A stretch of DNA of 64,000 nucleotides from a virus: the IMG/VR virus record IMGVR_UViG_3300023179_000054, positions 1-64,000 of that record; one strand, written 5' to 3'. The notes beneath the pieces are model-generated. The model made no database searches and was not told the origin of the DNA. It saw only the letters and a list, made by a program, of their open reading frames with translations. Shown piece by piece: positions 2,167 to 44,241 of the stretch (positions are counted from its first letter, which is position 1; the number at the start of each line of letters is the position of its first letter). Both the position numbers and the translations under genes were made by a program.

Positions 2167-2174
2167 CTATTTAG
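2167..2174 (-). promoter_or_regulatory. CTAAATAG late-promoter-like motif
   Basis: CTAAATAG on the minus strand overlaps the stop of the halogenase-like gene and opens the 170-base gap before the secreted peptidase. It matches the CTAAATA element used as late promoter in marine T4-like phages, and the same string recurs in other gaps of this window. Confidence 0.35.
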
Positions 2175-26703: not shown

Positions 26704-28146
26704 TTATTCTCCGTTCTTTAGATATATATGATTGCCTATAACAGCACAATCTAAACTTGTAGTTTTAAGTAATTCTACTACCGTTTCAGGATGACCTGCT
26801 ATAGGTTTGCCCGCTAAGTTTAAACTGGTATTTAATAACACAGGACATCCAGTTAATTTATAAAATTCCTCCAACAGTTTTCTAAAAATAGGATTTTTAT
26901 CACCAACCGTCTGCACTCTACAAGTTCCGTCTATATGAGTTATTGAAGGTAGTATATCAGATTTTAATCGACATGTAAAGAGCATATATTCGTCTTCCCA
27001 TTCCATATCGAAATAATCTTTTGCATATTCTACCAAAACGGAGGCACCAAAAGGTCTGTAGTTTTCCCTATTTTTTATTCTATTAATTATTTCTTTACCA
27101 TTAGGAATTCTTGGGTCCATAAGTATAGAACGATTTCCTAATGCCCTTGGGCCTATTTCTCCATGACCTTGATACCAGGCCACAGTTTGTCCTTCTGATA
27201 ATTTTTTAGCAATAAGTGATATAGTTTCATCTGTAGGAATATCGGAAGGAGAAATATCATTTTGCATATATGGAAATTGCGACATATCAAACATAGAAAG
27301 ATTATGTTTTTGTCTCAAATATTCAAGACATCCTAAACTCAAACCTTCATCACAAGAATGTGGTGCAATATATAAATTTTTAAAATGTTTTTTCAAAGTG
27401 GTATTCCACACTACATTTTGTGCTACACCTCCGGAATAACCAATAACATCATCTGGAGAGGCGAATTTTGAGAAAAGTTCTAATAATAATTCTTCAATTC
27501 TAAGGTGAATAGTCCTCAACCAATTGATTTTGGTGAGTTCGGAAACAAGATTATCACCTTTATAATTTATCCAACTATTATAGTTAAATATGTCGTTTAT
27601 ATTATACATATCATATTTTCTTAAAATATTCAAATATTCTTGATCAATAGTTCCATAAGATTGCAATCCCATCGCCTTACTGGCAACATCTACATTCAGA
27701 AGAGATTTAATATTTAAAGTTGTTCCGGCATTCATCATTCCCCATCCTATAGATCCGTTTTCTTTATTACCATGACTTATAAATTTCCATTTATTTTTTT
27801 TATCGAAAACAGACCATGTTTTATGATCACCTATACCATCTATAACAAAAGACACATCAGGAATTTTACCTATTAATGGATAAACACTTAAAGCATGTGC
27901 ATAATGATGATGTATGATTTGACAATTTAATTCTAATAAAGGACCATTACATGTTGCAATATCATCCATTTCATTAAATGAAATGTTCCAAAGGTCTTTA
28001 AGTTCATTTTCAAAATCACTAAAGGTTTTGAAACTGAACCTTTTTATATCTTTTGTTCTTTCAAATTTATGAAATCTTACAAATTTACCATCATAATAGG
28101 AGACACTATGATCATGATGAGTTAAACTAATACCTAATAATTTCAT
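26704..28146 (-). CDS. NodU/CmcH-type carbamoyltransferase
   Basis: A 480-residue protein of the carbamoyltransferase family that adds a carbamoyl group to a sugar or other alcohol using carbamoyl phosphate and ATP. It begins LLGISLTHHDHS, has the HHHYAHAL metal-binding block near residue 79, FVIDGIGDH, the CDEGLSLG and GEIGPRALGNRSIL motifs and ENYRPFGASV. Typical NodU proteins are 550-600 residues, so this is compact. Such genes occur in cyanophages. Target could be a glycan made by the locus at 33-44 kb. Confidence 0.87.
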   Translation of the reverse strand: MKLLGISLTHHDHSVSYYDGKFVRFHKFERTKDIKRFSFKTFSDFENELKDLWNISFNEMDDIATCNGPLLELNCQIIHHHYAHALSVYPLIGKIPDVSFVIDGIGDHKTWSVFDKKNKWKFISHGNKENGSIGWGMMNAGTTLNIKSLLNVDVASKAMGLQSYGTIDQEYLNILRKYDMYNINDIFNYNSWINYKGDNLVSELTKINWLRTIHLRIEELLLELFSKFASPDDVIGYSGGVAQNVVWNTTLKKHFKNLYIAPHSCDEGLSLGCLEYLRQKHNLSMFDMSQFPYMQNDISPSDIPTDETISLIAKKLSEGQTVAWYQGHGEIGPRALGNRSILMDPRIPNGKEIINRIKNRENYRPFGASVLVEYAKDYFDMEWEDEYMLFTCRLKSDILPSITHIDGTCRVQTVGDKNPIFRKLLEEFYKLTGCPVLLNTSLNLAGKPIAGHPETVVELLKTTSLDCAVIGNHIYLKNGE

Positions 28147-28958: not shown

Positions 28959-29738
28959 TTATATCTCCGCTATTAGAACAGGATCAACCAAACTTCTTTC
29001 ATTAGGATATCCAAACGGATTACACACAACTCTTGTATTGAATATCTTGTAATCAAAAGCATTATGTGTATGCCCATGTATCCATAGTTTTACATTATCG
29101 GTCATCATATGCTCCAGATCAGAAGCATATAGTGTATTCAGTTCTTTATCATTCGCATACTTTTCATGAATACTTTGCCATGAGGGAGCATGATGTGTTA
29201 CGACTACACAAGGTTCAGTTATCTCCTTTTCTAGGTACATTCTAGAAAGGACGTGTTCAATATAAGCGTCCTCCGGAGTAAACTTACGATAGTTGTCTTT
29301 AGCATCACAATACTTGATGACATTAAAATCATTCATGGCAAACCTTAGTTTGTTGATCGTCAATGGATTTTCAATATCAACCTCTGTCCAAAGCGAACAA
29401 CCAACAAACTTTACACCATCAATAACGATACTTTCTTTATCAAGAAAATGTAGGTTCTTATATTCCGACAATCCTTCACGAAGAATAGAGGCAGTCTTGT
29501 TGAATGTACCTTTATAGTGTTCATGGTTGCCCATAATATAGATTACATTCTTGAAGTTGGTACAGACCTCATCAAAGAACCTGTAATATCCAACATTGTT
29601 TATATTACGTTCTTTATTTTTGAATGCCTTAGCAATACAAATATCACCAGCCAACACCAGCACATCTGCACCAGCATTAGGAATATGGACGTCATGACCA
29701 AACTCAAGATGAAGGTCTGATGCGATCTGTATCTTCAT
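28959..29738 (-). CDS. Calcineurin-like metallophosphoesterase
   Basis: A 259-residue phosphoesterase with the family's metal motifs in order: SDLHLEF (DxH), LAGDI (GD), MGNHEHY (GNHE), VTHHAPS and HGHTHNAFDY (GHTH). These bind two metals for hydrolysing phosphomono- or diesters. The start at 29738 has GAGG six bases upstream. It is distinct from gp47 (62884) and the LpxH-like protein (34426). The substrate is unknown; a nucleic acid or nucleotide end group is possible. Confidence 0.85.
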   Translation of the reverse strand: MKIQIASDLHLEFGHDVHIPNAGADVLVLAGDICIAKAFKNKERNINNVGYYRFFDEVCTNFKNVIYIMGNHEHYKGTFNKTASILREGLSEYKNLHFLDKESIVIDGVKFVGCSLWTEVDIENPLTINKLRFAMNDFNVIKYCDAKDNYRKFTPEDAYIEHVLSRMYLEKEITEPCVVVTHHAPSWQSIHEKYANDKELNTLYASDLEHMMTDNVKLWIHGHTHNAFDYKIFNTRVVCNPFGYPNERSLVDPVLIAEI

Positions 29739-30105
29739 AATATTCCTCAATTAGTTTCTTACAGCGTTTCTTCCAGTCGTTTCGCTGCCATGATGCTTTG
29801 TCGTGCGATAGTTCATGGTAATCGTTGGCGATAAACTCCACGAGTTTTTTAAACTTTTCTAACTCTGCGATGCGCTCATACGGGTCTTGCTTAAACAACT
29901 CATCAGCAGCAACGACAGCACGACCATTTTCCGACTGCCAACATCCCTCCTCTGCCATAATGCCTATAGTGCGTTGGCCGATACACAGCGGCACTTCCAA
30001 CTCCGCAATCCGTTTTGCTTGAGCCTCAATAGCGTCGGCTGCTTCTATCATAGTATGACTTTGACTAGATCGTAAAAGATCAATCAACTCTTTGTGATCA
30101 GTCAT
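29704..30105 (-). CDS. Ea22-like coiled-coil protein
   Basis: A 133-residue helical protein with the A-A-D-A-I-E-A-Q-A-K-R-I-A-E-L-E block (residues about 22-37) and a second RIAELEKF block, shared with several neighbours to 31.9 kb. It resembles Ead/Ea22-type phage proteins, which assist phage takeover but lack a firm function. The start at 30105 overlaps the upstream gene by 8 bases. It is the leftmost member of the cassette array. Confidence 0.65.
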   Translation of the reverse strand: MTDHKELIDLLRSSQSHTMIEAADAIEAQAKRIAELEVPLCIGQRTIGIMAEEGCWQSENGRAVVAADELFKQDPYERIAELEKFKKLVEFIANDYHELSHDKASWQRNDWKKRCKKLIEEYYEDTDRIRPSS

Positions 30106-33078: not shown

Positions 33079-33103
33079 AGCACATTCCTTTCATTATGAT
33101 TAC

Positions 33104-33132
33104 ATTATAACACAAGGAATATGCGGTGTAAA
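33104..33132 (-). promoter_or_regulatory. Sigma70-type promoter
   Basis: TTTACA (33127-33132), 17-base spacer, TATAAT (33104-33109), upstream of the Api92-like gene. Confidence 0.7.
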
Positions 33133-33149
33133 TGCGACATATTGTCGCA
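33133..33149. repeat. Perfect inverted repeat next to -35 box
   Basis: TGCGACA-TAT-TGTCGCA, a 7-bp inverted repeat with a three-base centre, directly upstream of the -35 box of the Api92-like promoter. It could be an operator or the stem of a terminator for the gene to the right. Confidence 0.45.
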
Positions 33150-33166
33150 CCTTGTTTACAATCAAA

Positions 33167-33215
33167 TGATCTATAAATGGGTCAGGAGACGGTCATATGA
33201 TCTGTTTATAGATCA
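33167..33215. repeat. 11-bp inverted repeat with 27-base spacer
   Basis: TGATCTATAAA (33167-33177) and TTTATAGATCA (33205-33215) are exact inverted copies. The right arm covers the stop codon of the gene ending at 33213. A long hairpin at the 3' end of that transcript is likely, without a clear U-run. Confidence 0.5.
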
Positions 33216-33440
33216 ATCCATATTTCCGAAGTCATTATTCAGGCGAGAAGCAGGAACGGAACCTCCACCACCGCTTGCGGATGATGAAGGACCGGAAGTA
33301 GGAAAGTTATGATGACTGGCATTAAAGGATGTAGAACCTTCACTCCAACCAGGATTTTGCCATGAATAGGCCGGTATATCATGTACCGGTTCTCCACTTA
33401 AAGAATGAAACTGTGCCAGTATAATCAAAGTCTTTATCAT
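33213..33440 (-). CDS. Small Ser/Gly-rich protein
   Basis: A 75-residue protein with a short hydrophobic start (MIKTLIILAQF) and a Ser, Gly and Pro-rich low-complexity body (SSSASGGGGSVP). It overlaps the glycosyltransferase stop as ATGA. It may be exported. Not recognised. Confidence 0.5.
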   Translation of the reverse strand: MIKTLIILAQFHSLSGEPVHDIPAYSWQNPGWSEGSTSFNASHHNFPTSGPSSSASGGGGSVPASRLNNDFGNMD

Positions 33441-34429
33441 ACTAAATTATTCACAAATTGGTCAGTTGCGGATTCCCATGAAAATTGTTTTGCTCTTGCT
33501 ACGGCATCTTCTCTTTTTAGTTTAGATGCCTTTACAATTGCTTCTTCATAGTGATAACTATCGGTTAGAATACCAGATTTACCATCTTCAATAATATATC
33601 GGTTCACCTCGTTGTCTAATCCAGCAACAGGTAATCCACATGCCATGGCCTCTAACACAACAAGTCCAAATGTGTCTGTTAGAGAAGGCCAAGCAAACAC
33701 ATCATATGCTGGTAAAAGGTCGGCAATCTCTTGTTGTGTTTTACGACCGAGAAAATAAGCATCTGTGTATCTTGCTTTGTATTCATCTAATTGTGGGCCA
33801 TCACCAATAACATATTTACTGATGTTAGGATTGCTTATCTCAAGGTATTCAATTAGATTCTTTTCTGCTGATACCCTACCGACATAAATGGCACGGATAG
33901 TACCTGTGTTGGTCCAAGGTGATGGTTTGAATAGGTCTGTATCAACTCCACGGGACCATATCTTTACGTTCCGTATACCCATTTTAGAACAGTAATCAAC
34001 CATGGCGGGGGTAGGTACCATAACACAATCGCTGTTTCTATGGAACCAACGAAAATACCTACCAGTAATTCTTGGTGGTATATAAGCGTGTTCATATAGG
34101 TATTCTGGATATCGAGTATGAAAGGATGTTGTGTAATGTCTTTTATATTTTTTACAATAATATCTTGCGGCAAGGCCTATACTTCCTTCTGTTGCTATGT
34201 GTATGTGTTCGGCATTCTTCACATATTCATCAGCAAGTCCCATAGGCATAATCGGCATATAAATGCCAGTTGATGGTTGTAATGGTACAGTTAGTTTGAA
34301 GAGGCCGGGGTGAACCACCTTGACCTCAAACCCTCGTTTCTCAAGGTGTTTAATAGTTGTCTTTAATGTCGTGACAACTCCGTTTATTTGGGGTTCCCAC
34401 GCATCTGTAAAAATAGTAATGTTACTCAT
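33437..34429 (-). CDS. GT4-family glycosyltransferase (MgtA/PimB-like)
   Basis: A 330-residue GT-B glycosyltransferase. It has the N-terminal FTDAWEPQINGVVTTL loop typical of the alpha-mannosyl/glucosyl MgtA-SqdX group, TSFHTRYPEYL, and the donor-site block AWPSLTDTFGLVVLEAMACGLPV with the EX7E pair. It overlaps the LpxH-like gene by ATGA. Such pairs occur in bacterial genomes, so both may have been acquired together. Acceptor likely a lipid or surface glycan. Confidence 0.83.
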   Translation of the reverse strand: MSNITIFTDAWEPQINGVVTTLKTTIKHLEKRGFEVKVVHPGLFKLTVPLQPSTGIYMPIMPMGLADEYVKNAEHIHIATEGSIGLAARYYCKKYKRHYTTSFHTRYPEYLYEHAYIPPRITGRYFRWFHRNSDCVMVPTPAMVDYCSKMGIRNVKIWSRGVDTDLFKPSPWTNTGTIRAIYVGRVSAEKNLIEYLEISNPNISKYVIGDGPQLDEYKARYTDAYFLGRKTQQEIADLLPAYDVFAWPSLTDTFGLVVLEAMACGLPVAGLDNEVNRYIIEDGKSGILTDSYHYEEAIVKASKLKREDAVARAKQFSWESATDQFVNNLV

Positions 34430-35166
34430 CGTCTTATTATCTCAAACTTTCCATTATGGTGTTCAACAATAGCGGTACAGGATTCTACCCAGTCGCCGCA
34501 GTTTAAGTATTCAATATTATCAAAAGAACATATATTAGCATGATGAATATGGCCGCAAACCACCCCATCGACGCATCTCCTTCTGGCAGCATCAGCAACT
34601 ACCTTTTCGTAATCACCGATAAAGTTTACCGCTTCTTTGACACTCGATTTTGCCCATGCTGAGAGGGAAAAACCACGAATGCCTAATATATGGTATATAT
34701 TCTGCAAATACCTATTAAGGTCTATCATCCTATCATACAACCATCCACCTATTAAGGCAAGCCATTTGGCGTTCATCGTAACAAGGTCAAACTGGTCTCC
34801 ATGAATAATAAGGTATTTCTTACCGTTTTCTCCATAGTGTATAGCATCATTCACCAGTTTTATACTACCCATTTCTATTCCATTATACTCTCTAAGGAAT
34901 TCATCATGATTACCTGTAACGTATATAACCGGAATATCTTTCTTAGATTGTTTTAGGAAGAATTGAATAACGTTATTGTGCGCCTGAGGCCAATAGACTT
35001 TCTTTCTCATCATCCATCCGTCTATGATATCTCCAATCAAGTAATATCTGTCGGCTTCGGTTTCTTTGAGGAACTCTAAGAGTTTTTCTGCGTTTGAATA
35101 TTTGGTGCCAAGATGAACATCGGATATAAAGATACTTCTATACTTTTTCTTATCTTTACTTTTCAA
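34426..35166 (-). CDS. LpxH-like UDP-2,3-diacylglucosamine diphosphatase family phosphoesterase
   Basis: A 246-residue metallophosphoesterase with SDVHLGTK, LIGDIIDGW, VTGNHDEF, IHGDQFD and CGHIHHANI, the order and loops of the LpxH family, which cleaves UDP-2,3-diacylglucosamine in lipid A synthesis. No lipid A gene accompanies it except the overlapping glycosyltransferase, so the substrate may be another nucleotide-linked sugar or lipid. A GATAAATA late-like motif lies 27 bases upstream. Confidence 0.78.
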   Translation of the reverse strand: MKSKDKKKYRSIFISDVHLGTKYSNAEKLLEFLKETEADRYYLIGDIIDGWMMRKKVYWPQAHNNVIQFFLKQSKKDIPVIYVTGNHDEFLREYNGIEMGSIKLVNDAIHYGENGKKYLIIHGDQFDLVTMNAKWLALIGGWLYDRMIDLNRYLQNIYHILGIRGFSLSAWAKSSVKEAVNFIGDYEKVVADAARRRCVDGVVCGHIHHANICSFDNIEYLNCGDWVESCTAIVEHHNGKFEIIRR

Positions 35167-35193
35167 GGCCGCTCCTTTGGTTAGAAGGCCTAT

Positions 35194-35201
35194 TATTTAT
35201 C
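35194..35201 (-). promoter_or_regulatory. GATAAATA late-promoter-like motif
   Basis: GATAAATA on the minus strand, close to T4 TATAAATA, 27 bases before the LpxH-like ATG in the 55-base gap after GalE. It marks a possible new transcription unit inside the glycan locus. Confidence 0.35.
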
Positions 35202-35221
35202 GCACCGCAACATTAACCGTT

Positions 35222-36169
35222 TTATGACGATTTCATACTTTCCATAATATCGTCTAACGTGTATAGAGGTGTATAATCTAATAGTTCTTTTAATTTGGTA
35301 TTATCAGCGACCAGATAAGGAACGTCTCCTTTCCTTTTGCCTGTATAAACTATAGTCATTTCACCATTATGAATGATTTGATTTGCCTTGTCAACCACTT
35401 CTTTTACGGAGTATCCGTTAGATGAACCGATATTGACGGCAAAGTTTGCTTTCTCTTGTTTTTCGAGATAACGATAGGCATGTATATGGGCACGGCAAAT
35501 ATCTACCACATGGACATAATCACGAACACAAGTTCCATCATCAGTTTGGTAATCATCACCATATATTGTTGCTGTTTTATTTTTAGCAAGTATAGGAATT
35601 AAATGTGTTTCTGGGTCATGTTCTTCATATAGATTTGCTTTTACATTACGACCACAGGCATTAAAGTATCTAAGTCTTGCCACATTTATATCATCAAGGC
35701 CTTCTAATATGGTTTCACACATAGCCTTTGATTTACCATAAACTGATGTAGGATTTACTGGTTGAGTTTCAAGTATATTACCACCAAAGATATAATCTCT
35801 ACTACAATCACCATAAACTGCGGCTGTGGAAGAAAAGATAAAGTTCTTTACTCCGTATTTCTTTGCTGCGGAGATTGCTCCAAGTGTTGCCCCGATGTTG
35901 TTTCGGTAATATGAGAATGGGTTTCGTTCACCTTCTTCCACAGAAATGTATGCGGCAAAGTGGAATATGCAGTCGATACGCCCCTTTGTGGAATAAAAGG
36001 TATCGCTGACAAGATCAGCATGGATAAAATCATCATAAAGATGCCTAAGATGCGGTTTAACATCTTTATCTACTCCTATTATATGGCAGTCAGGATAAAA
36101 TGTGCCAAGTTCATGACACATATGGCTGCCGATATAACCGTTACAACCTGTGACTACGAATGTTTTCAT
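35222..36169 (-). CDS. galE: UDP-glucose 4-epimerase-like (GalE)
   Basis: A 315-residue extended short-chain dehydrogenase. NAD-binding GCNGYIG is at residues 8-14; FHFAAYISV, SSTAAVYG, and catalytic YGKSK (Y-x3-K) follow, then RYFNACG and GTCVRDYVHV, which are GalE hallmarks. It interconverts UDP-Glc and UDP-Gal or N-acetyl forms, supplying donors for the neighbouring transferases. TAATG overlap with the oxygenase upstream. Confidence 0.87.
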   Translation of the reverse strand: MKTFVVTGCNGYIGSHMCHELGTFYPDCHIIGVDKDVKPHLRHLYDDFIHADLVSDTFYSTKGRIDCIFHFAAYISVEEGERNPFSYYRNNIGATLGAISAAKKYGVKNFIFSSTAAVYGDCSRDYIFGGNILETQPVNPTSVYGKSKAMCETILEGLDDINVARLRYFNACGRNVKANLYEEHDPETHLIPILAKNKTATIYGDDYQTDDGTCVRDYVHVVDICRAHIHAYRYLEKQEKANFAVNIGSSNGYSVKEVVDKANQIIHNGEMTIVYTGKRKGDVPYLVADNTKLKELLDYTPLYTLDDIMESMKSS

Positions 36170-36804
36170 TATGAAACCTTATATTTAATATTACCAGAAA
36201 CACTTATTCTATATTCATCACTTGTATAAAATGGACATACAGAATGATTTAAAACACTAGGAAAAAACAAACCTTTACCTTCATAACTTTTATCGGTAAA
36301 TATAGGATAATTACGAATCATACCTAAAATATTGCTATAATGAAAAACAAAAGATGATGTTAAATTTTTTTTCTCATTCATTTCATTATATACTTTTTTT
36401 TCTTCTATTACATCATATGGAATTTTTATCCATATAACAAATGAAAAAATTCCAGAATGGTCATGTAAAGGATTAAATTCATGTTTTTTTTGAAAGTTGA
36501 CCCAGCAATTTTGTAAAATAAGAGGAACACCAGATGTCAGTATATTGTCACAATATTCTAAGGAACCAAAATTATAAAAATATTTTTCAACTAAAGGATA
36601 TATAATATTTCCAATATGTTCTCGACATTCAATTAATTTATATTCTTTATCAATATGTCCAGCTAAACTTTTATTACATTTAATAGATTTATCAAAATTA
36701 TTTTGTATTCCATTAACTTCATTTTTTATTGGTAATAACTGTTCTTCATCTAATTCAAATTGTAAAAATCCTAAATTAGGAAATGTAAAAGGAGTTATAT
36801 TCAT
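36169..36804 (-). CDS. 2OG-Fe(II) oxygenase (2OG-FeII_Oxy_5 type), copy A
   Basis: A 211-residue protein with CWVNFQKKHEFNPLHDHSG (HxH) and an FFPSVLNHSVCPFYTSDEYRISVSGN C-terminal half. It shares most blocks with the gene at 37362, and the two paralogues flank a methyltransferase. They may hydroxylate a sugar or lipid of the glycan locus. Confidence 0.75.
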   Translation of the reverse strand: MNITPFTFPNLGFLQFELDEEQLLPIKNEVNGIQNNFDKSIKCNKSLAGHIDKEYKLIECREHIGNIIYPLVEKYFYNFGSLEYCDNILTSGVPLILQNCWVNFQKKHEFNPLHDHSGIFSFVIWIKIPYDVIEEKKVYNEMNEKKNLTSSFVFHYSNILGMIRNYPIFTDKSYEGKGLFFPSVLNHSVCPFYTSDEYRISVSGNIKYKVS

Positions 36805-37352
36805 TTGGATGCCGTCATCAATAGAACCGCACCACGGGCAGGTTCAGGATTACGTAAATCAGGAACACGTTTGATATCTTTAAATCCTGCTTCACTCAAA
36901 TGTTTGTGTAAGATTACCTCACAGAAACCATTAATATGTCCCATACCTGGTATTTTGTGTTCTTCTGGATGACGCCAACCACCGAACAAATAATCCATGG
37001 CATTATCCCAAGGGTTTTCATGCTGTCTTAACCAATCAACGTTGGCCTTTTCATTCCAATCCCTCTTCACAATACGTTCCATAATCCACAAAACATCAGG
37101 ACAGGAAATCTCAAAGATACCACCTGGTTTCAAAACACGATTGATTTCTTTTAATACCAAAGGAGCATCAAACTTGGTTAGGTGTTCAATAACATCACCA
37201 AGATAAATCTTGTCAGCAAAGTTATCTTCAAATGGATATGGATAATGTGTGAGGTTGTGGACGTGTGTGACGCCGGCCCACTGGTGTAAATCCATTCTTA
37301 TCGTAGCATCGGCCTTTGGATGTGGGCCTGAACCAATATCAATAATTACCAT
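36801..37352 (-). CDS. SAM-dependent methyltransferase (type 11)
   Basis: A 183-residue class I methyltransferase. Motif I is IDIGSGPHPKAD, then LGDVIEHL and RVLKPGGIFEISCPD. This is the layout of methyltransferase-11/UbiE-like enzymes in glycan loci. The ATG is in a short gap, and the stop overlaps the downstream oxygenase ATG. Confidence 0.82.
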   Translation of the reverse strand: MVIIDIGSGPHPKADATIRMDLHQWAGVTHVHNLTHYPYPFEDNFADKIYLGDVIEHLTKFDAPLVLKEINRVLKPGGIFEISCPDVLWIMERIVKRDWNEKANVDWLRQHENPWDNAMDYLFGGWRHPEEHKIPGMGHINGFCEVILHKHLSEAGFKDIKRVPDLRNPEPARGAVLLMTASK

Positions 37353-37361
37353 GTTATATCC

Positions 37362-37967
37362 TTATGCAAAGTTACCAGAAACACTTATTCTATATTCATC
37401 ACTTGTATAAAATGGATTCACAAAATGCCGCATTTTAGCAGGAAAGAATATAAGTTTATTTTCATATGTTTTATCAGCAGGAATAGGATGCCTTTGTATT
37501 TCACCTAAAGCATCTGTATATTGAAAGCAAAAGTTAGCAGTAATGTTTTCACCTGGATTAATGTGAGGGAATGTTTTATATTCTTCTTGTATATAGTATG
37601 GCACTCTTAACCATAAAGCAAAACTAAAAACACCTAAATGATGATGTACCGGATTAAACTCATGTTTCTTTTGATAGTTAACCCAAACATTCTCTAAAAA
37701 ATATCCATCATCTTTACAAATAAGATGTGGAAATATTTTCTTATATTCATATACTAATGGAAGTAAAAGATTTTCTATATGAGATTTACATTTAAATAAG
37801 TAATACTCATTATTGAGATGGCCAGCCAGACCTTGATTAAATCTGGCGGCCTTATCAAAATTTTTATATACTTCCTTAACCTCTTCAACAATTGGTTTAA
37901 CATCATCGTCATATAAATCAACAGATAGAAAACCTAAATTGCTAAAGTGTTGACTACTTACTTCCAT
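37362..37967 (-). CDS. 2OG-Fe(II) oxygenase (2OG-FeII_Oxy_5 type), copy B
   Basis: A 201-residue paralogue of the gene at 36169: NVWVNYQKKHEFNPVHHHLG and the IFFPAKMRHFVNPFYTSDEYRISVSGN block are shared. The last 15 residues are nearly identical between the two. It overlaps the epimerase gene by 14 bases. Confidence 0.76.
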   Translation of the reverse strand: MEVSSQHFSNLGFLSVDLYDDDVKPIVEEVKEVYKNFDKAARFNQGLAGHLNNEYYLFKCKSHIENLLLPLVYEYKKIFPHLICKDDGYFLENVWVNYQKKHEFNPVHHHLGVFSFALWLRVPYYIQEEYKTFPHINPGENITANFCFQYTDALGEIQRHPIPADKTYENKLIFFPAKMRHFVNPFYTSDEYRISVSGNFA

Positions 37968-38937
37968 TCAAAGCATCCCTAATACAAAGACGGAGACTAT
38001 CATCAACCTTCATCTTTGCTTCCCAACCAAGGAGTTCTTTAGCCTTATCAACATTAGGAACACGATAGCGAACATCGTTCTTATATGCTGGTTTATGAGC
38101 AAAGGTCATAGCAGCATCAAAGGTACAACCAAACTCATTAGCAGCAATCGATCTAATCTTCCTTGCTAACTCAAGCATAGTAATCGGTTCATGATTACCT
38201 AGATTAAACGCATGACCGTTTGTCTTAGAGGAAAATGAATGTGTAGCAATTGCCTCTGCTACCTCGTCAATCCATGTGAAGCAACGGATTTGTTCACCAT
38301 CACCTAACATAGGAATAACATTAGAACGTTTAACAATAATCTCGTTCATAAAGTCAGCAAAAACATGAGAAACACCTTGTGTACCTTCTGACTTTTCATA
38401 TGGAGTTAGAATGTTAAATGGACGCCAAATGGTATAAGCAACACCATATTGCTTCTCAAAAGCAATAGACATCTTTTCACCAACATACTTTGATAAACCA
38501 TATTCCGTGTAAGGAGCAATTACAGTATCAACATCATCTTCCTTAACTTCACCTTGGCAGTTCTCATATACCATAGATGATGATGTATAAACAACCTTAG
38601 GTACATGGTTATCAACTGCGGCCTTGAGGACATTATTGTGTAGTGCTAAATCTTCACCAAGGATATCGGCACAATACATATTGAAACCACCAACACCATA
38701 AATACGTGCCGCAGCCTGAATGATTAGGTCTGGTTTAACATCCTTCACAAGAGCATTAACTGATGGACGATCTGTGAGGTCGGCCTTGCGAAACTCATAT
38801 CCTTGTCCGGCAATACCAAGACGTTCACCATAACGGCAAAGATTATCCACACCATATACAGCATGGCCATCTCTAAGCAGTTTTGGAATAACTGCCTGCA
38901 TCAAAGAACCTTCGCTTCCGCATACTAATACTTTCAT
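37954..38937 (-). CDS. NAD-dependent sugar epimerase/dehydratase
   Basis: A 327-residue extended short-chain dehydrogenase: the glycine-rich start is GSEGSLMQ rather than the common GxxGxxG, then SSSMVYEN, and catalytic YGLSK (Y-x3-K), RPFNILTPYE, and a C-terminal substrate domain. It is likely an NDP-sugar epimerase or GDP-fucose-synthase-like enzyme, which would suit the GT10 fucosyltransferase nearby. Confidence 0.78.
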   Translation of the reverse strand: MKVLVCGSEGSLMQAVIPKLLRDGHAVYGVDNLCRYGERLGIAGQGYEFRKADLTDRPSVNALVKDVKPDLIIQAAARIYGVGGFNMYCADILGEDLALHNNVLKAAVDNHVPKVVYTSSSMVYENCQGEVKEDDVDTVIAPYTEYGLSKYVGEKMSIAFEKQYGVAYTIWRPFNILTPYEKSEGTQGVSHVFADFMNEIIVKRSNVIPMLGDGEQIRCFTWIDEVAEAIATHSFSSKTNGHAFNLGNHEPITMLELARKIRSIAANEFGCTFDAAMTFAHKPAYKNDVRYRVPNVDKAKELLGWEAKMKVDDSLRLCIRDALNGSK

Positions 38938-40169
38938 TTCACATCTCCAACTTTATAAATCCCTGTATTACTTAGTTTGCTTTCTGGGAACATCTTCCAG
39001 AGGTCAGCAACAATACATCCTTCTCTAAACATATCTAATTTACAATAATCAGCAAATACTGTATGTGGTGTCATAACAATAACCGCATCATAGTCCTGAA
39101 ATGCTGGTGGGGTTTCTCCAGCAATATAATAAGGGTCAACCATCCATGCTTTTACACCATGCTTCTTACAAACCTTTTTCATTTTAAAGGCGAGAGAGTT
39201 GCGAGTATCATCACAATCCTTCTTAAATGTGGCACCAAGAATAAGGACTTTCTTTATACTTTTATTAATAACTTTAATACGATTAAAGATATAGTCAGGC
39301 ATACCTTCGTTAATAAGAAAGCTAGTGTTAATAAGATCGCCAAAGGGAATGTCAGACAACAAGAAACGGCCGTCTTTGAAGAGGCAAGGACCTCCAACAT
39401 TAGGTCCTGGATGAGGCACATCCATTCGTGGATAATCGTAATTACATGCATCGATAACTTTGTCAATATTAATGCCATGTTTTTCTCCAATCATCCAAAA
39501 CTCATTAGCAAAGGCAAATGAAACATAACGATACATATTAGTCATTAGTTTACCAATCTCAACCTCTCTTGGTGTAAGATGAAATACTTTATTACTAATG
39601 AATGTATTAAAGAATAGTGAGGCCTGTAAATAGGAATCATCAGAAAAGGCACCAACTAATTGTGGCAGACTGGAGATTTCTGTAATACTTTTACCTTGAA
39701 CGACACGTTCTGGTGCAAATACAAGATGATAATCTTTACCTTCTATCCAACCATGATTATCTTCAATATGGTCTCTAATAACCTCTGTTGTTCCTGGTGA
39801 TACTGTAGAACGAAGGACAATTAATTGTCCTTTCTTCATACGAGGAATAAGAGTATCGTCAACAAAATTAAAAAGATCATCCAATCGGGCATTACCTTCT
39901 CCATCTACTGGCGTGCCAATCATAATGGCAATAACATCAGAGTCCTTAATAGGATCGAATCCAGTAGTGAATATAACTGATTTATTGCCAAGGCACTTAT
40001 CTAATAGTCCTTTAGCATCTTCTTCAACATAAGGCACGTTGCCTTCATTTAGTTGTCTTACAATATCTTCATTAACATCAATACCATAAACTGTATGTCC
40101 GGCATTCGCAATAACTAATGAAAGAGGGAATCCAACGTGGCCGCCGGCACCAATAACAGAAACAATCAT
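38934..40169 (-). CDS. Nucleotide-sugar dehydrogenase (UDP-sugar 6-dehydrogenase family)
   Basis: A 411-residue NAD-dependent enzyme oxidising a nucleotide hexose to the uronic acid. It shows IGAGGHVG at the N-terminus, RSTVSPGTTE, APERVVQG, EIGKLMTNMYRYVSFAFANE, and the catalytic cysteine in GGPCLFKD. The WecC/UDP-ManNAc dehydrogenase group fits best (APERxxxG). Coupled by ATGA to both neighbours. Confidence 0.86.
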   Translation of the reverse strand: MIVSVIGAGGHVGFPLSLVIANAGHTVYGIDVNEDIVRQLNEGNVPYVEEDAKGLLDKCLGNKSVIFTTGFDPIKDSDVIAIMIGTPVDGEGNARLDDLFNFVDDTLIPRMKKGQLIVLRSTVSPGTTEVIRDHIEDNHGWIEGKDYHLVFAPERVVQGKSITEISSLPQLVGAFSDDSYLQASLFFNTFISNKVFHLTPREVEIGKLMTNMYRYVSFAFANEFWMIGEKHGINIDKVIDACNYDYPRMDVPHPGPNVGGPCLFKDGRFLLSDIPFGDLINTSFLINEGMPDYIFNRIKVINKSIKKVLILGATFKKDCDDTRNSLAFKMKKVCKKHGVKAWMVDPYYIAGETPPAFQDYDAVIVMTPHTVFADYCKLDMFREGCIVADLWKMFPESKLSNTGIYKVGDVK

Positions 40170-41107
40170 CTTAAAGTCTCCAATAAAACATCTTCTATAT
40201 CATTACAAGTATCTTGTATAGTATGATTACACATAACATAATTATAAGCATCATCAATCTTTTTATCATTCCGTTTATGTTTACGGAGCAATTCCATTAA
40301 TTCTTCTTCGTCATTATATGTGGTGCCATAATAGCACATATCTTTCGCACCGGCAATATCTCTTGCGTACCAAGGCACTTTATTCATCATAGATTCTAAA
40401 AGGACAAGTCCGAAACCTTCCTCATAAGAGTTCATAATATAAGCATCTGCGGCACTAATAGAAAGTAATACCTCTGTCTTGTCTTTACCAAAGAAACATT
40501 TTACATTATTTGTTTCCTTTGGCATCAAATGTTCTTCACCATATCCATATAAATGAAGTTCGGCATTAGAAATCTTTGCTTTTGTAAATGCGTCTGCTAA
40601 CGGTGCCATAGCCTTGTGCGGCCAAAATCCACCTGCGGAAACAAATATTTTTTTGCCTGTTAAGTTTGCTCTTTGATATTTGTGAGGAACAATACCATGT
40701 CGAACACGGCGACCTTTATCAATAACATTCCATTTTTTAAGGTGTTCGATATCCATAGATGTAGAATAACCAAGATAAGGATGATACTGTAGTCCTAATT
40801 TACAAACATCACTATCACTTGGTTTGATTATTAGATAAAGAACAGGAGACCTAATCTTATTACCATTAAAATGAATAATGTTTTGATAATAGACATCACC
40901 ACCATGGACGATAATAAGATCCCACTTTTCATTTAGTATCTGATAATCTTTATTGACCTTTACACCATTATAATCACCTTGGTGCGTCTCTGCCAATACG
41001 GTAATGTCATGACCTCTTTTAAGCATCTCTTCGGCCATGTTCTGCACATAATACTCACTACCGCCAGGATAAGGTGCGTAGCGGTGAACCACAAACAATA
41101 ATCTCAT
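40166..41107 (-). CDS. GT4-family glycosyltransferase
   Basis: A 313-residue GT-B glycosyltransferase: N-terminal YAPYPGGSEYYVQNMAEEM, the acceptor domain, then SAGGFWPHKAM and the donor-site NSYEEGFGLVLLESMMNKVP with E-x7-E. It has no counterpart elsewhere in the window. It is coupled to the GT10 gene by TAATG-like overlap. Confidence 0.83.
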   Translation of the reverse strand: MRLLFVVHRYAPYPGGSEYYVQNMAEEMLKRGHDITVLAETHQGDYNGVKVNKDYQILNEKWDLIIVHGGDVYYQNIIHFNGNKIRSPVLYLIIKPSDSDVCKLGLQYHPYLGYSTSMDIEHLKKWNVIDKGRRVRHGIVPHKYQRANLTGKKIFVSAGGFWPHKAMAPLADAFTKAKISNAELHLYGYGEEHLMPKETNNVKCFFGKDKTEVLLSISAADAYIMNSYEEGFGLVLLESMMNKVPWYARDIAGAKDMCYYGTTYNDEEELMELLRKHKRNDKKIDDAYNYVMCNHTIQDTCNDIEDVLLETLR

Positions 41108-41991
41108 TATCCCTCCATAACAAACTTATCCCACCATTCATAAAGGTTGTGTAAGTCCGTATATTCATTAGGTATATCATTTTTAAAAGCAGGACGTTCT
41201 ATAATATCCAAGTATTCCTGTTTACCAGCAGGTGAATCCAGATGTTCTACATATTTAACAACATCATTTAGTGTCTTAAAATTATGGCAATTGATGAAGG
41301 CACTTGTATTGAAATCACGGTCAACCGTTGGTGATCCCCAATATATAGGCATCGTTTTTACTTGTAAAGCATTAAACAATTTTTCGGTTGTATAACCAGG
41401 ATAAGAACCATTCTCAAAACAAATATTAAAACGATAGTTATTAAGGAAGTCTAACTTATATTGTAGTTTATCCCTAGGAAGAACCTCACCCATATTGTTT
41501 AGATGTGGACCAGCCGAGTCAACATGTTTATATGTGTTAGTTAATCCAAACATGGCGTTTCGCATTTCTTGTCGAGGATTAGAAACAACAAAGGAACAAA
41601 ACTTTCTTGTATCATAATCCTTTTCATAATCATGTTTAAGACCAACTAATTGGTAATAATTGTCCGTCCATTTTTCCACTACTGCACCATACATATCGAT
41701 AACATATAGTGGCAAACGGTAATGCTTTGGACTATTCTCATGGTCGAATGTCATGGCAGCAAAACATTCATCATAGTTTGGCCTTACATTCTCACCTGTA
41801 TAGAAAATCTTTTTAACATTACTACCATACTGGCGATGTGATTGACCGAAGTTTCCATCACCATATATAAGATACTCTGGGTTATCATTTGTTATAATGA
41901 TGTCGTAATACTTACCCAGAGTATGTGTAAAGAAATTTATTGCCGTTGTGAATGTATCGGCAAAACCAATACGAAGGTTCTTGCGGGTCAT
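41107..41991 (-). CDS. GT10-like alpha-1,3-fucosyltransferase
   Basis: A 294-residue glycosyltransferase. The C-terminal half carries the GT10 block FNICFENGSYPGYTTEKLFNAL, followed by PIYWGSP and FINCHNF. These residues bind GDP-fucose. The presence of a GDP-sugar epimerase-like neighbour would give the donor. A fucosylated glycan in phage or host is implied. Confidence 0.83.
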   Translation of the reverse strand: MTRKNLRIGFADTFTTAINFFTHTLGKYYDIIITNDNPEYLIYGDGNFGQSHRQYGSNVKKIFYTGENVRPNYDECFAAMTFDHENSPKHYRLPLYVIDMYGAVVEKWTDNYYQLVGLKHDYEKDYDTRKFCSFVVSNPRQEMRNAMFGLTNTYKHVDSAGPHLNNMGEVLPRDKLQYKLDFLNNYRFNICFENGSYPGYTTEKLFNALQVKTMPIYWGSPTVDRDFNTSAFINCHNFKTLNDVVKYVEHLDSPAGKQEYLDIIERPAFKNDIPNEYTDLHNLYEWWDKFVMEG

Positions 41992-42587
41992 TACTTATAC
42001 CAGAAGAAAGCGGAATTTGTAGATAGATTAATTGGTGCTGTGATACTATAATCATTACGAAATTCATTTACAGCCCGACTTACTGCCTCGATAGAAGAAT
42101 AATCATGGCCACAGAATAGTCCACCCTTCTTCAATAAAGGATAATACTTTTCACAGTCCATATATGTTGCTCCATATGAATGGTCGCCATCAACAAAGAT
42201 AAAATCAAACTCTTCTTTATCGGTAATAGACTTAATCTTATCAGCAGCATCCTCGGATGTTTCTCTAATCATCTCTACTCGATCACCATATTGTTTTAGG
42301 TTCTCTTGTGCGATCATCATAAACTTATCAATAACTTTTTGTGTAATCTCACCATTCCAATCATCATAAGCCTTGTATGGGTCAATCGTGTATAGTTTAA
42401 TAATGTTAGGGCATTTATCTAATAGAAATGCGGTTGACTCGGCACGGCAAGTGCCAATCTCTAAACCTACAACATTCTCACCAAGTCTTTTAACATAAGG
42501 TGCCAGTCCTTTTACTGATACCCAATCATAAGGCCATTTATCACCAAGTTCTTTAATCGTCATAAAATCTTCATCAGTCAAAGCCAT
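41991..42587 (-). CDS. Class I SAM methyltransferase
   Basis: A 198-residue methyltransferase of the Methyltransf_24 kind. Motif I is VGLEIGTCRAEST, then YTIDPYKAYDDW and FDFIFVDGDHSY, with KKGGLFCGHDY. These O-methyltransferase-like enzymes are frequent in glycan loci. The stop overlaps the GT10 start. Confidence 0.8.
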   Translation of the reverse strand: MALTDEDFMTIKELGDKWPYDWVSVKGLAPYVKRLGENVVGLEIGTCRAESTAFLLDKCPNIIKLYTIDPYKAYDDWNGEITQKVIDKFMMIAQENLKQYGDRVEMIRETSEDAADKIKSITDKEEFDFIFVDGDHSYGATYMDCEKYYPLLKKGGLFCGHDYSSIEAVSRAVNEFRNDYSITAPINLSTNSAFFWYK

Positions 42588-42589
42588 CT

Positions 42590-43489
42590 TTAATCTCCAA
42601 ACTTATTTGTAAATAATTCTTTCCACTCAGGCACACGGTCCCACTGGTGTATTACCGATACTTTATTTCCGTTTGCGTAAACTTCATTATTGATTACATT
42701 ATATTCTATTTTACTCACAAATGGCAAGTCAATATTAGGATTTGCTCTATATGCTTCACCAATACCACCTGAACCGGCCTGAATAGCAGGCAGAGATGTG
42801 CCAGCATGAACAACCCAAGCATCGGAAGGATTTGTAAATTTAGTTGATAATGAATATACTTCCGATTGTAGAAGGACATTTAGTGCGGCTTGGTCTGGAC
42901 CACCGCCGCCTGGAACATGTGGATTTAGTCCACGACAAATCAACCAGACATTAAGTGCCAAGTCTTTCATAGCATTTCTTGAACCGGCAATAACACCAGC
43001 ACAATAGATTTCATTATCACCATATGTTTCAAGGAAATACTGACCGAAAGCCTGCTGTAAATTATTTCTTCCCCATGGTTCATCTTTATACTTTAGATTT
43101 TCCGAACCAACAAGAATATTTCCAAAAAAGTTTTTGTCTAACCATTTAGATGGATCGTCCTGAAAGATAACATCTCTAACATCGGTCATAATAACATTTT
43201 TGACCGGTTCACTTAATAGATTTAGAAAACTATAAAGATGGAAGAAGCGGTCAACCATAACAGAACCACGAGAATTATCATGAGAGAATCCAGTTTTTTC
43301 ATCATATTGATTACAACCAATCAACATAAATCCTTCGGCAGTAAGTTTTCTTACCGTCTCGGCATCCATGTTATAAACAATAAGTGCCTTGTGTCCAGTA
43401 AAACCAGACTTTTTGATAGAGTTGGCCCAGTGTTGTATCTGTTCCCATCTATATCTATCAACTACACCTACAACTATATCTTTGTCCAT
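42590..43489 (-). CDS. Glycosyltransferase-like protein with D-x-x-D motif
   Basis: A 299-residue protein with FHLYSFLNLL, NVIMTDVRDVIFQDDP and a GGGGPDQAALN segment. The TDVRD acidic site after a beta-strand and the GPDQAALN block are typical of GT-A fold transferases related to DUF616/GT8-like proteins. Its position among transferases supports the assignment. Donor and acceptor unknown. Confidence 0.68.
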   Translation of the reverse strand: MDKDIVVGVVDRYRWEQIQHWANSIKKSGFTGHKALIVYNMDAETVRKLTAEGFMLIGCNQYDEKTGFSHDNSRGSVMVDRFFHLYSFLNLLSEPVKNVIMTDVRDVIFQDDPSKWLDKNFFGNILVGSENLKYKDEPWGRNNLQQAFGQYFLETYGDNEIYCAGVIAGSRNAMKDLALNVWLICRGLNPHVPGGGGPDQAALNVLLQSEVYSLSTKFTNPSDAWVVHAGTSLPAIQAGSGGIGEAYRANPNIDLPFVSKIEYNVINNEVYANGNKVSVIHQWDRVPEWKELFTNKFGD

Positions 43490-44241
43490 GGATATTTCCC
43501 TTCATAATATTGTTCTTGTGTTCTATTACCTGCCTCGAAAAACTCTTTTGTTACTGAATTAGGATTACCATCTAAACGGTAGCAAAGTGTATGCTTACCA
43601 TTTGTATCATACTTAGCATATTGTTTAACAGAATAAAAATACTGGCGATCACCACCCCAACCGGCGTGCCAGAAATGGCATGTCTTTTGTATGAACTCTC
43701 TCTTCCAACAAAATGATGATGTGTCAATTAAGAACTGTTCACCATGAGGAGAGCGGCGTGACATGAATATTGGCCATTTGCCGAGGCTTTCACAATTATC
43801 ATCGGTAATATACTTTCCTTCTGGCGAGTATATCTTACGGAGTGAGAAAGAGAAATCCAAGTTTTTACTCTCGGCAGTCTGCACAAGGGTCTCAACGTGA
43901 TCACTTTCATACCAATTGTCCTCATCAAGAAACATAATATAATCGGAATTTAATAGATGTGGCATAGCAGCATAGATACGATGACCATAAAAATCACCGC
44001 CTGTTTTGCCTGTATTTTCTGGAAGAATAAGAACTTTTACTTTATCTTTTGGTGGTAAACCAACTTGTTCAAATACACCGTTGACAAATTCTTTACCATC
44101 AACTACAATAAGGTGTTTAATGTGTTTATAGGTTTGTTTCTCAACACTATCTAAGGCATCTTTTAGTTTTGGTGAACCAATAGTGGGGGTTATGACCGTG
44201 ACGGTCTTAGGTTTGGAAGTATCTTCAATCACAAGTTTCAT
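43474..44241 (-). CDS. GT2-family glycosyltransferase
   Basis: A 255-residue GT-A glycosyltransferase: TVITPTIGSPKLKDALDSVEKQTY at the N-terminus, then VVDGKE and IMFLDEDNWYE as the metal site, and a Trp-containing acceptor domain (FWHAGWGGD). It heads the glycan operon on the minus strand, after a strong terminator and near a CTAAATA motif. Confidence 0.85.
   Translation of the reverse strand: MKLVIEDTSKPKTVTVITPTIGSPKLKDALDSVEKQTYKHIKHLIVVDGKEFVNGVFEQVGLPPKDKVKVLILPENTGKTGGDFYGHRIYAAMPHLLNSDYIMFLDEDNWYESDHVETLVQTAESKNLDFSFSLRKIYSPEGKYITDDNCESLGKWPIFMSRRSPHGEQFLIDTSSFCWKREFIQKTCHFWHAGWGGDRQYFYSVKQYAKYDTNGKHTLCYRLDGNPNSVTKEFFEAGNRTQEQYYEGKYPWTKI

What the first reader, a model, noticed from the sequence alone, without database searches (positions are those of the whole stretch)
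33437..44241. Eleven-kb glycan synthesis locus in a T4-like phage
It includes GT4 (two), GT10, GT2 and a DUF616-like transferase, GalE, a second epimerase, a nucleotide-sugar dehydrogenase, two methyltransferases, two paralogous oxygenases and an LpxH-like enzyme. The set can build and decorate an oligosaccharide with uronic acid and fucose-like sugars. It may glycosylate virions or remodel the host surface against superinfection.
Basis: partly seen in the sequence, partly recalled or inferred. Interest (0 to 1): 0.72.

Follow-up and report, generated by a model that had tools for sequence, protein, structure and literature searches.

The report
Phage-borne host lipid-remodelling gene pair
Two genes at the end of this phage's sugar-gene cluster look like a complete bacterial pathway for stripping phosphate from membrane lipids and putting sugar in its place, so the virus may use its host's membrane as a phosphate store while it replicates.

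Summary
The 13-gene locus is real and under purifying selection, but it is two modules. (A) A conserved surface-glycan core, of a kind known from cyanophages and pelagimyophages. (B) The last two genes, the 'LpxH-like' enzyme (34426-35166) and the GT4 after it (33437-34429), match PlcP-Agt, the bacterial pathway that turns phospholipids into glycolipids under phosphate starvation. PlcP: 44 bits on the LpxH model against 232-337 for true LpxH; GNHD, not GNRD. Agt: 13 of 14 residues tested by mutation in SAR11 Agt have identical counterparts. The pair lies together in 27 of 29 viral clusters; 14 of 19 with enough flank show no glycan-core dehydrogenase nearby; 5 of 28 have phoH directly upstream. 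pmoC is in 14 of 27 hand-picked related records; the one tested is Methylocystis type. Nineteen of 20 pmoC-bearing genomes of one bacterial family have their own adjacent plcP-agt. Searches of one open-licence library found no phage PlcP-Agt in print. Activity and benefit to the phage are inferred; nothing was assayed.

The parts
33437..34429 (-). agt-like GT4 glycosyltransferase (GT4a), predicted diacylglycerol glucosyl/galactosyl/glucuronosyl transferase; overlaps plcP by 4 nt
   Evidence: Pfam GT4; Agt motifs; 13 of 14 residues mutated in SAR11 Agt have identical counterparts, the 14th (T162) is Ser (placed by motif and spacing, the SAR11 sequence itself was not at hand); 33-43% identical to GT4 genes next to plcP in cells
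34426..35166 (-). plcP-like metallophosphoesterase (phospholipase C type), TTG start
   Evidence: 49-56% identical to the 80 best cell relatives kept; not LpxH by HMM score, GNHD signature and tree
35207..35228 (-). 22-nt conserved upstream element of plcP, candidate PhoB-type site (unproven)
   Evidence: exact match only here in 92,407 bp (next best 6 mismatches); 1-4 mismatches upstream of plcP in 10 viral loci, 7 distinct clusters
35194..35201 (-). NATAAATA, late-promoter-like -10 of plcP
   Evidence: late-promoter consensus recalled
35222..36169 (-). GalE, UDP-glucose 4-epimerase
   Evidence: TIGR01179 268 vs cut-off 262 bits; PDB GalE
36169..36804 (-). 2OG-Fe(II) oxygenase 1
   Evidence: PF13759, phrog_81
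36801..37352 (-). class I methyltransferase 1
   Evidence: PF08241
37362..37967 (-). 2OG-Fe(II) oxygenase 2, 47% identical to oxygenase 1
37954..38937 (-). SDR nucleotide-sugar epimerase/dehydratase, substrate unknown
   Evidence: PF01370; PDB matches are mixed
38934..40169 (-). nucleotide-sugar dehydrogenase (UDP-glucose or UDP-HexNAc type)
   Evidence: TIGR03026 above cut-off; best PDB match a hypothetical UDP-ManNAcA dehydrogenase
40166..41107 (-). GT4 glycosyltransferase b
   Evidence: PF00534; only a 42-residue match to GT4a
41107..41991 (-). GT10 fucosyltransferase-like
   Evidence: PF18025 + PF00852
41991..42587 (-). methyltransferase 2
   Evidence: PF13578
42590..43489 (-). GT-A fold glycosyltransferase
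   Evidence: AlphaFold pLDDT 93, Foldseek to alpha-1,3-GalT/ABO
43474..44241 (-). GT2 glycosyltransferase
   Evidence: PF00535
44298..44837 (-). HSP20, conserved upstream neighbour of the glycan core (13 of 13 clusters with room)
   Evidence: PF00011

Best explanation
The locus is a surface-glycan operon of known kind with a second, separable module at its 3' end: a virus-encoded PlcP-Agt lipid-remodelling pathway. PlcP (34426-35166) would cut the phosphate head group from host phospholipids, giving diacylglycerol and a phosphate-bearing head group. Agt (33437-34429) would then cap the diacylglycerol with glucose, galactose or glucuronic acid, giving a phosphorus-free glycolipid that keeps the membrane intact. 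The freed phosphate would feed phage DNA synthesis, and glycolipids would hold the membrane together until lysis. GalE, and possibly the sugar dehydrogenase, in the same operon could supply sugar donors. Shown here: family membership by sequence, conserved catalytic residues, close pairing, independence from the glycan genes, purifying selection, and linkage in relatives to phoH and pmoC. Inferred: enzyme activity, phosphate as the benefit, PhoB-type control, and a Methylocystis-type methanotroph host.
For: PlcP not LpxH: in 5 gammaproteobacterial genomes true LpxH scores 232-337 bits on TIGR01854; the second copy seen in 4 of these 5 scores 42-50, the copies in 5 alphaproteobacterial genomes 42-56, the phage 44. 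GNHD in 50 of 50 viral and 79 of 80 cell sequences, GNRD in 5 of 5 LpxH. A 45-row tree splits LpxH from phage plus cell PlcP, 100/100. Agt: 13 residues whose mutation abolished or almost abolished SAR11 GTcp activity (PMC8231724) have identical counterparts in 47 of 47 viral GT4a of 300 aa or more; T162 is Ser in 45, Thr in 2. Pairing: same strand within 1 kb in 27 of 29 viral clusters, within 34 nt in 23; directly downstream in 51 of 80 best cell relatives and in 19 of 20 pmoC-bearing genomes of one family. Independence. P context: phoH directly upstream in 5 of 28 clusters; the Mosig homologue lies beside a PstS-family gene. Selection: dN/dS 0.08 for both genes. Host: pmoC in 14 of 27 related records; the L065 PmoC matches Methylocystis/Methylosinus-type PmoC best (organisms of the PDB entries recalled) and is 90-91% identical to genomes of one family. 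Methylosinus OB3b makes GADG through its own plcP-agt (PMC9239053).
Against: No activity, expression or lipid data. The window record (92,407 bp, possibly a fragment) has no pmoC, pstS or phoH match. pstS is found in 1 of 21 records, Mosig only. The upstream element scores only 9 of 14 against the Pho-box consensus, and the 92-kb genome holds 458 sites at least that good; clusters such as L042 and L048 lack it. Agt identity to cell homologues is 33-43%, below the 46-58% reported within the GTcp group. Four of the 27 pairs have 226-718 nt between the genes, with an HNH endonuclease gene in one (L083). Mosig and S-SRM01 carry the PlcP homologue without an annotated agt nearby, S-SRM01 lacks the GNxD motif, and L086 has no GT4a. 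The AlphaFold model of PlcP is only moderate (pLDDT 76, helical part poor). The pmoC records were hand-picked and several are near-identical, so 14 of 27 is not a frequency.
Confidence: 0.7

Rival explanations
1. One reading: all 13 genes form one oligosaccharide pathway that glycosylates virions or remodels the host surface against superinfection, with the LpxH-like gene touching lipid A.
For: One strand, tight overlaps; pair and core dehydrogenase share a locus in 5 of 29 viral plcP clusters plus the window; a pelagimyophage paper reads such genes as O-chain modification.
Against: LpxH test failed; 14 of 19 clusters with room lack the core dehydrogenase upstream; plcP without the dehydrogenase in 162- and 147-kb records and the dehydrogenase without plcP in a 172-kb record.
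Confidence: 0.12
2. PlcP-Agt is real but its benefit is a changed membrane (superinfection block, resistance to cationic peptides, lysis timing, or support of phage-encoded PmoC), not phosphate.
For: Glycolipids made by Agt raised polymyxin B resistance in E. coli (PMC8528852, passages); an aminolipid-deficient host mutant bound phage less (PMC9938194, passages); pmoC, a membrane protein gene, lies within 1 kb downstream of agt in 5 of 29 clusters.
Against: phoH directly upstream in 5 of 28 clusters and a PstS-family gene beside the Mosig homologue; PlcP activity frees head-group phosphate if it works as in bacteria.
Confidence: 0.2
3. Agt makes the lipid anchor on which the other glycosyltransferases of the operon build a membrane glycolipid.
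For: Shared locus in the window and 5 of 29 clusters; GalE and a sugar dehydrogenase are in the same operon.
Against: 14 of 19 clusters with room have the pair away from the core dehydrogenase; 12 of 18 IMG/VR records with plcP show no core dehydrogenase, although several are fragments.
Confidence: 0.06
4. The sugar genes modify phage DNA (hypermodified base), as in T4-type glucosylation or arabinosylation.
For: Oxygenases, glycosyltransferases and sugar-nucleotide enzymes in a T4-like phage; Shewanella phage Thanatos has a pentose-modified cytosine (search listing only).
Against: No thymidylate synthase/hydroxymethylase family match in any of 11 records searched, several possibly incomplete; GT10, GT2 and methyltransferase families here are typical of glycans (families; reading recalled).
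Confidence: 0.04

Closest known systems
PlcP-Agt (GTcp) lipid remodelling pathway of Alpha- and Gammaproteobacteria (PMC4796936, PMC8231724, PMC8528852, PMC9239053)
   Same: Same two families, same order (plcP then agt), same catalytic residues, tandem or overlapping genes
   Different: Encoded by T4-like phages; phage PlcP forms a group apart from the sampled cell PlcPs (isolates left out there); activity untested
Phosphate-acquisition auxiliary genes of phages (pstS, phoA, phoH)
   Same: Expected benefit is phosphate for DNA synthesis; phoH or a PstS-family gene sits beside phage plcP in some relatives
   Different: Source would be the host's own membrane phospholipid, not uptake from outside
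pmoC-phages of freshwater methanotrophs (Chen 2020, PMC7674155)
   Same: pmoC and HSP20 in related records, Methylocystis-type PmoC
   Different: A term search of that paper's main text found no occurrence of 'lipid', 'glycosyltransferase', 'phosphate' or 'UDP'; the window record has no pmoC match
LPS/O-chain gene sets of cyanophages and pelagimyophages (PMC3037559, PMC7029224)
   Same: Phage sets of glycosyltransferases and sugar-nucleotide enzymes, with a UDP-glucose dehydrogenase in pelagimyophages
   Different: This core has a fixed order beside HSP20; in 50,697 GenBank phages its dehydrogenase and GT10 have only matches under 60% identity
LpxH (UDP-2,3-diacylglucosamine hydrolase)
   Same: Fold and metal-site motifs
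   Different: 44 vs 190 bits cut-off, GNHD instead of GNRD, separate clade

Membership tests
PlcP | Groups with bacterial plcP rather than LpxH in score and phylogeny | tested here: met
PlcP | Metal-site residues of the LpxH/PlcP fold conserved (D16, H18, D46, N86, H122, H206, H208; ligand list recalled from LpxH) | tested here: met
   invariant in 12 of 12 aligned phage sequences
PlcP | agt or another non-P lipid gene next to it | tested here: met
   27 of 29 viral clusters within 1 kb, 23 within 34 nt; 4-nt overlap in the window
PlcP | Pho-box control | tested here: inconclusive
   Cell plcP upstream regions are enriched for Pho boxes, 43 of 80 at >=11/14 vs 17 of 400 random pieces, 7 of 19 vs 15 of 380 in pmoC-bearing genomes; best phage sites score 8-11 in nine loci and 9 in the window
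PlcP | Phospholipase C activity on PE/PG/PC | not testable with these tools
   needs enzyme assay
Agt (GTcp group of GT4) | His104-Asp256 dyad, GRVAxEKN and FPSxTDTFG motifs, DAG-site Arg163 and Trp320 | tested here: met
   residues in 47 of 47 viral sequences of 300 aa or more; motifs, allowing V/I/L and A/S and F/W/Y at single places, in 47 of 49, the other two truncated; GTcp itself was not aligned, positions follow the paper's motifs
Agt (GTcp group of GT4) | 46-58% identity within the group | tested here: inconclusive
   Compared with cell neighbours of plcP, not with GTcp: 33-43%, 38-41% in pmoC-bearing genomes; OB3b Agt itself is 43% to the SAR11 one
Agt (GTcp group of GT4) | DAG glycosylation | not testable with these tools
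   needs enzyme assay
LpxH | TIGR01854 curated cut-off 190 bits; GNRD motif (motif recalled, then seen in 5 of 5 controls) | tested here: not met
   44-45 bits; GNHD
pmoC-phage | pmoC present | tested here: not met
   0 in the 92,407-bp record, which may be incomplete; 14 of 27 records of the group have it
T4-like phage related to Kyanoviridae | T4 core genes closest to pelagi-/cyanomyophages | tested here: met
   (two genes compared; one Stenotrophomonas phage also ranks high)
Phage LPS/surface-glycan cluster | Glycan product on host surface or virion | not testable with these tools
   gene content only

The most novel reading that the evidence does not exclude
A lineage of T4-like phages that infects Methylocystis-type methanotrophs carries its own two-enzyme lipid-remodelling pathway. 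During infection it converts the host's abundant phospholipid membranes into glycolipids, using the membrane as a phosphate bank for phage DNA while the membrane, and in relatives a phage-encoded PmoC in it, keeps working. The pathway is an old viral lineage of its own and is carried as a mobile cassette (phoH-plcP-agt, plcP-agt-pmoC, or at the end of a glycan operon).
Probability: 0.45. Interest if true: 0.8.

Novelty: new variant of a known kind. Interest (0 to 1): 0.67.

Why it matters
Phage phosphate genes with a known role act on uptake or outside sources (pstS, phoA; PMC3037559). A phage that liquidates host phospholipids would tap a different source, inside the cell, and would mean that viruses change the lipid make-up of infected cells in nature. 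MGDG and GADG were found in phosphate-poor waters and tied to starved bacteria (PMC4796936), so infection could contribute to that signal. In methanotrophs the affected membrane is where methane oxidation takes place (recalled), so infection could alter methane turnover. It is directly testable: two genes, known assays, and a laboratory methanotroph whose plcP-agt knockout already exists (PMC9239053).

Tried and rejected
LpxH/lipid A role for 34426-35166: rejected by score, motif and tree. One-pathway reading of all 13 genes: rejected because the pair is separable. DNA hypermodification: no thymidylate synthase/hydroxymethylase family match in 11 records. A proven Pho box: not claimed. The consensus alone does not single out the site in the phage genome (458 sites at >=9 of 14), and a Synechococcus phage study says such predictions are unreliable (PMC10976474, passages). 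A general phage promoter as the reason for the element: unlikely, since it occurs once in 92 kb. T4 late-promoter TATAAATA is not enriched in the window (5 seen, 10 expected). pstS in relatives: only Mosig, 1 of 21, so no general linkage to pstS is claimed. Recent acquisition from the methanotroph host: not supported, phage PlcPs are a separate group (98/91, Mosig and S-SRM01 left out). In the earlier tree with those isolates the phage rows were not one group (2 changes; 28% of bootstrap trees). pmoC next to agt is a minority arrangement (4 of 22 clusters with at least 2 kb of room, plus L025). In one search the pair counts as 2 of 7 core clusters with room; two more clusters that have it (L010, L025) fell short of my room limit and were not counted. 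Novelty in print: all ten searches were of the PMC open-licence library only. 'plcP' with 'phage' gave 18 papers: most judged from the listing, passages read of three (PMC9804370, PMC9938194, PMC9457565); none seen reports a phage-encoded PlcP. PMC10987575 on phage phosphorus genes has no hit for plcP, phospholipase or lipid in its main text. Supplements could not be read, and most subscription papers are absent. PMC6052262 on PlcP and manganese is not held.


Full report
WHAT IS THERE. The window is bases 1-64000 of a 92,407-bp virus record. Thirteen minus-strand ORFs fill 33437-44241 with ends that overlap or nearly touch. Two labels change: ORF 42590-43489 is a GT-A fold glycosyltransferase (pLDDT 93; nearest solved folds alpha-1,3-galactosyltransferase and ABO transferases, TM about 0.5), with no DUF616 match at E<=0.1, and the LpxH-like ORF is not an LpxH (below). 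dN/dS of all 13 genes, against one relative each, is 0.06-0.27, so they are maintained as proteins.

THE PHAGE. T4 core genes are present (gp41-, gp46- and gp47-type; major head protein, scaffold, portal, sheath, terminase). The major head protein is 66% identical to Pelagibacter phage Mosig, 64% to Methylophilales phage Melnitz and a Stenotrophomonas phage, about 62% to the cyanophages listed; gp41 is 58-61% identical to the Melnitz and Synechococcus phages listed first. The tRNA-Pro(tgg) and tRNA-Arg(tct) of the window have the same anticodons as two of the three Mosig tRNAs seen. Megablast of the locus found no match among 50,697 GenBank phage records.

TWO MODULES. A scan for the dehydrogenase gave 37 viral loci, 23 distinct after merging near-identical ones. 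Counting only clusters with enough flanking sequence, the core is constant: HSP20 13 of 13, GT2 16 of 16, GT-A 16 of 16, methyltransferase 2 18 of 18, GT10 20 of 20, GT4b 18 of 22, second epimerase 14 of 14. The 3' part varies: oxygenase 2 in 2 of 11, methyltransferase 1 in 6 of 10, oxygenase 1 in 1 of 9, GalE in 7 of 9, plcP and agt in 2 of 7 (L010 and L025 have the pair but fell short of the room limit). A scan for the LpxH-like gene gave 48 viral loci. With three further loci already held, 51 loci fall into 29 clusters, of which 27 have GT4a on the same strand within 1 kb: 23 within 34 nt and 4 at 226-718 nt (in L083 an HNH endonuclease gene lies between). Of the other two, L060 ends at the contig edge and L086 shows no GT4a. 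Of 19 clusters with at least 5.2 kb upstream of plcP, 5 have the core dehydrogenase there and 14 do not. Among long records, G017 (162 kb) and G019 (147 kb) have plcP and no core dehydrogenase; G023 (172 kb) has the dehydrogenase and no plcP; G011 and G012 have both, at least 41 kb apart. Completeness of these records is unknown. The pair is therefore its own module.

WHY PlcP AND NOT LpxH. On the LpxH model TIGR01854 the five gammaproteobacterial genomes searched hold a true LpxH at 232-337 bits. Four of these five also show a second copy at 42-50 bits; the five alphaproteobacterial genomes hold one at 42-56 bits (and one of them a further 22-bit fragment); the phage protein has 44 bits against a cut-off of 190. 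LpxH carries GNRD in 5 of 5, the phage type GNHD in 50 of 50 viral and 79 of 80 cell sequences; the Mosig homologue has GNHD, the S-SRM01 one no GNxD. In a 45-row tree LpxH and the rest are separated with full support on a long branch (the tool warns that long branches limit such joins). In 51 of 80 a GT4a homologue lies directly downstream, the commonest arrangement described for plcP (PMC4796936, section read). Their upstream regions are enriched for Pho boxes: 43 of 80 score at least 11 of 14 against 17 of 400 random pieces from the same loci (many of the 80 are close relatives).

WHY Agt. GTcp, the SAR11 Agt, was dissected by mutation (PMC8231724, two sections read). Thirteen residues named there, whose mutants were inactive or nearly so (G16, G82, G85, H104, R163, R190, K195, D256, T257, F258, G259, E264, W320), have identical counterparts in 47 of 47 viral GT4a of at least 300 aa, window included; T162 is Ser in 45 and Thr in 2. 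I placed them by motif and spacing, because the GTcp sequence itself was not at hand. Both donor motifs are present in 47 of 49 viral sequences, the other two being truncated. Identity to cell homologues is 33-43% and 38-41% to pmoC-bearing genomes. That is below the 46-58% quoted for the GTcp group but near the 43% between Methylosinus OB3b and SAR11 Agt. The other GT4 of the locus gives only a 42-residue match to it.

HOST AND COMPANIONS. Genes next to the pair in relatives include phoH, directly upstream on the same strand in 5 of 28 clusters with at least 300 nt there (L044, L057, L060, L068-L074, L075/L076), a YkuD and a ribonucleotide reductase gene (L062), and AmoC/PmoC (L065). PF04896 matches 14 of 27 related records, in none of 14 control genomes, and not in the window's record. 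The records were hand-picked and the 14 make about nine distinct phages, so this is not a frequency. pmoC lies 348-938 nt downstream of agt in five clusters (L008, L025, L042, L058, L065 and copies) and upstream of the pair in a sixth, L059. In L008 the order is GalE-plcP-agt-pmoC-Api92-like; the window has the same order with a 358-nt gap where pmoC would be. The PmoC proteins seen are 89-95% identical to that of L065 or equal to it. The L065 PmoC scores 481-521 bits on the Methylocystis/Methylosinus group of solved PmoC, 333-353 on the next group, 211-220 on ammonia monooxygenases (organisms of the entries recalled). Among 199 genomes of the family of a Beijerinckiaceae MAG, 20 have a PmoC match at E<=1e-60, the best 90-91% identical. 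Of these 20, 19 hold both plcP and agt, by their coordinates in every case adjacent with agt downstream. So the likely host already has the pathway, and OB3b's was shown by knockout to make GADG. In a 52-row tree the phage PlcPs form one group apart from methanotroph and other cell PlcPs (98/91): not a recent host copy. That tree left out Mosig and S-SRM01; with them the phage rows were not one group. In GenBank phages 6 of 50,697 records have the PlcP homologue, among them Mosig (43%), beside a gene annotated as phosphate ABC transporter that matches PF12849, and S-SRM01 (37%), both without an annotated agt within 8 kb. GT4a has 10 matching records there, at 24-34% identity, none of them Mosig or S-SRM01. 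The L065 PmoC has no match there.

CONTROL REGION. The 22 nt at 35228-35207 occur exactly once in the 92-kb genome (next best 6 mismatches) and, with 1-4 mismatches, upstream of plcP in 10 of the 84 viral loci scanned (7 distinct clusters), although the preceding gene differs. In the window the element overlaps the GalE stop codon. It begins like a Pho box (CTGTCATAAAAC in L041 and L062) but its second half is degenerate: 9 of 14 in the window, 11 in L041. The plcP genes of pmoC-bearing genomes have a TGTCAT half-site within 250 nt upstream in 18 of 19 (40 of 950 random pieces), mostly with a degenerate partner: 7 of 19 reach 11 of 14, against 15 of 380 random pieces. Other phage clusters lack the element. 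I treat it as a candidate operator of a host regulator, not as a shown Pho box.

MECHANISM AND LIMITS. Established for bacteria: PlcP turns PG and PE to diacylglycerol, Agt glycosylates it. Inferred for the phage: the same reactions during infection. A rough budget from recalled numbers: about 2e7 phospholipids per E. coli-sized cell equal the phosphorus of some 60 genomes of 160 kb, so the pool is large enough to matter. GalE, and possibly the dehydrogenase, could supply donors, but the dehydrogenase is nearest to a UDP-ManNAcA dehydrogenase among solved structures, so a UDP-GlcA supply is not shown. The product of the glycan core is unknown; GT10 suggests a fucose-like sugar, but no GDP-mannose dehydratase is among the 13 genes.

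COMPARISON AND VERDICT. The glycan core belongs to a known kind: LPS-type genes in cyanophages (PMC3037559, passages) and pelagimyophages (PMC7029224, passages). The PlcP-Agt pathway is known in bacteria. Its presence as a phage module, linked to phoH or pmoC, was not found in the ten PMC searches. A term search of the pmoC-phage paper's main text found no lipid, phosphate or glycosyltransferase. I rate it a new variant of a known kind, interest 0.67.

Noticed in passing
2167-3444 (-), 16275-17888 (-), 22457-23632 (+): Three ORFs with tryptophan-halogenase domains in one phage (PF04820; 63, 341 and 95 bits); function in the phage unknown.
   Followed up: no
26704-28146 (-): Carbamoyltransferase (PF16861 + PF02543), another possible glycan or small-molecule decorating enzyme near the locus.
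   Followed up: no
57784-59043 (-): DruA domain (PF14236), named after the Druantia defence system, in a phage.
   Followed up: no
28959-29750 (-): Second calcineurin-like phosphoesterase, kept at 81% identity downstream of the locus in L081 and L082.
   Followed up: partly
L065 7854-8621, L008 16406-17173, L042 12636-13400 and others: pmoC within 1 kb downstream of agt in five clusters of related viral contigs, followed by HSP20 in several.
   Followed up: yes
L044, L057, L060, L068-L074, L075, L076: phoH directly upstream of plcP on the same strand in five clusters.
   Followed up: yes
L168 6906-8741 (Pelagibacter phage Mosig): A plcP homologue annotated as UDP-2,3-diacylglucosamine hydrolase lies divergently beside a PstS-family gene, a likely misannotation.
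   Followed up: partly
L085 7942-11696: A 58%-identical plcP with an agt-like gene lies downstream of a CHASE2-guanylate cyclase gene; this contig may be cellular or an odd virus.
   Followed up: no
33079-33436: Gap between agt and the Api92-like ORF, at the place where L008 carries pmoC; loss or never gained is not resolved.
   Followed up: partly
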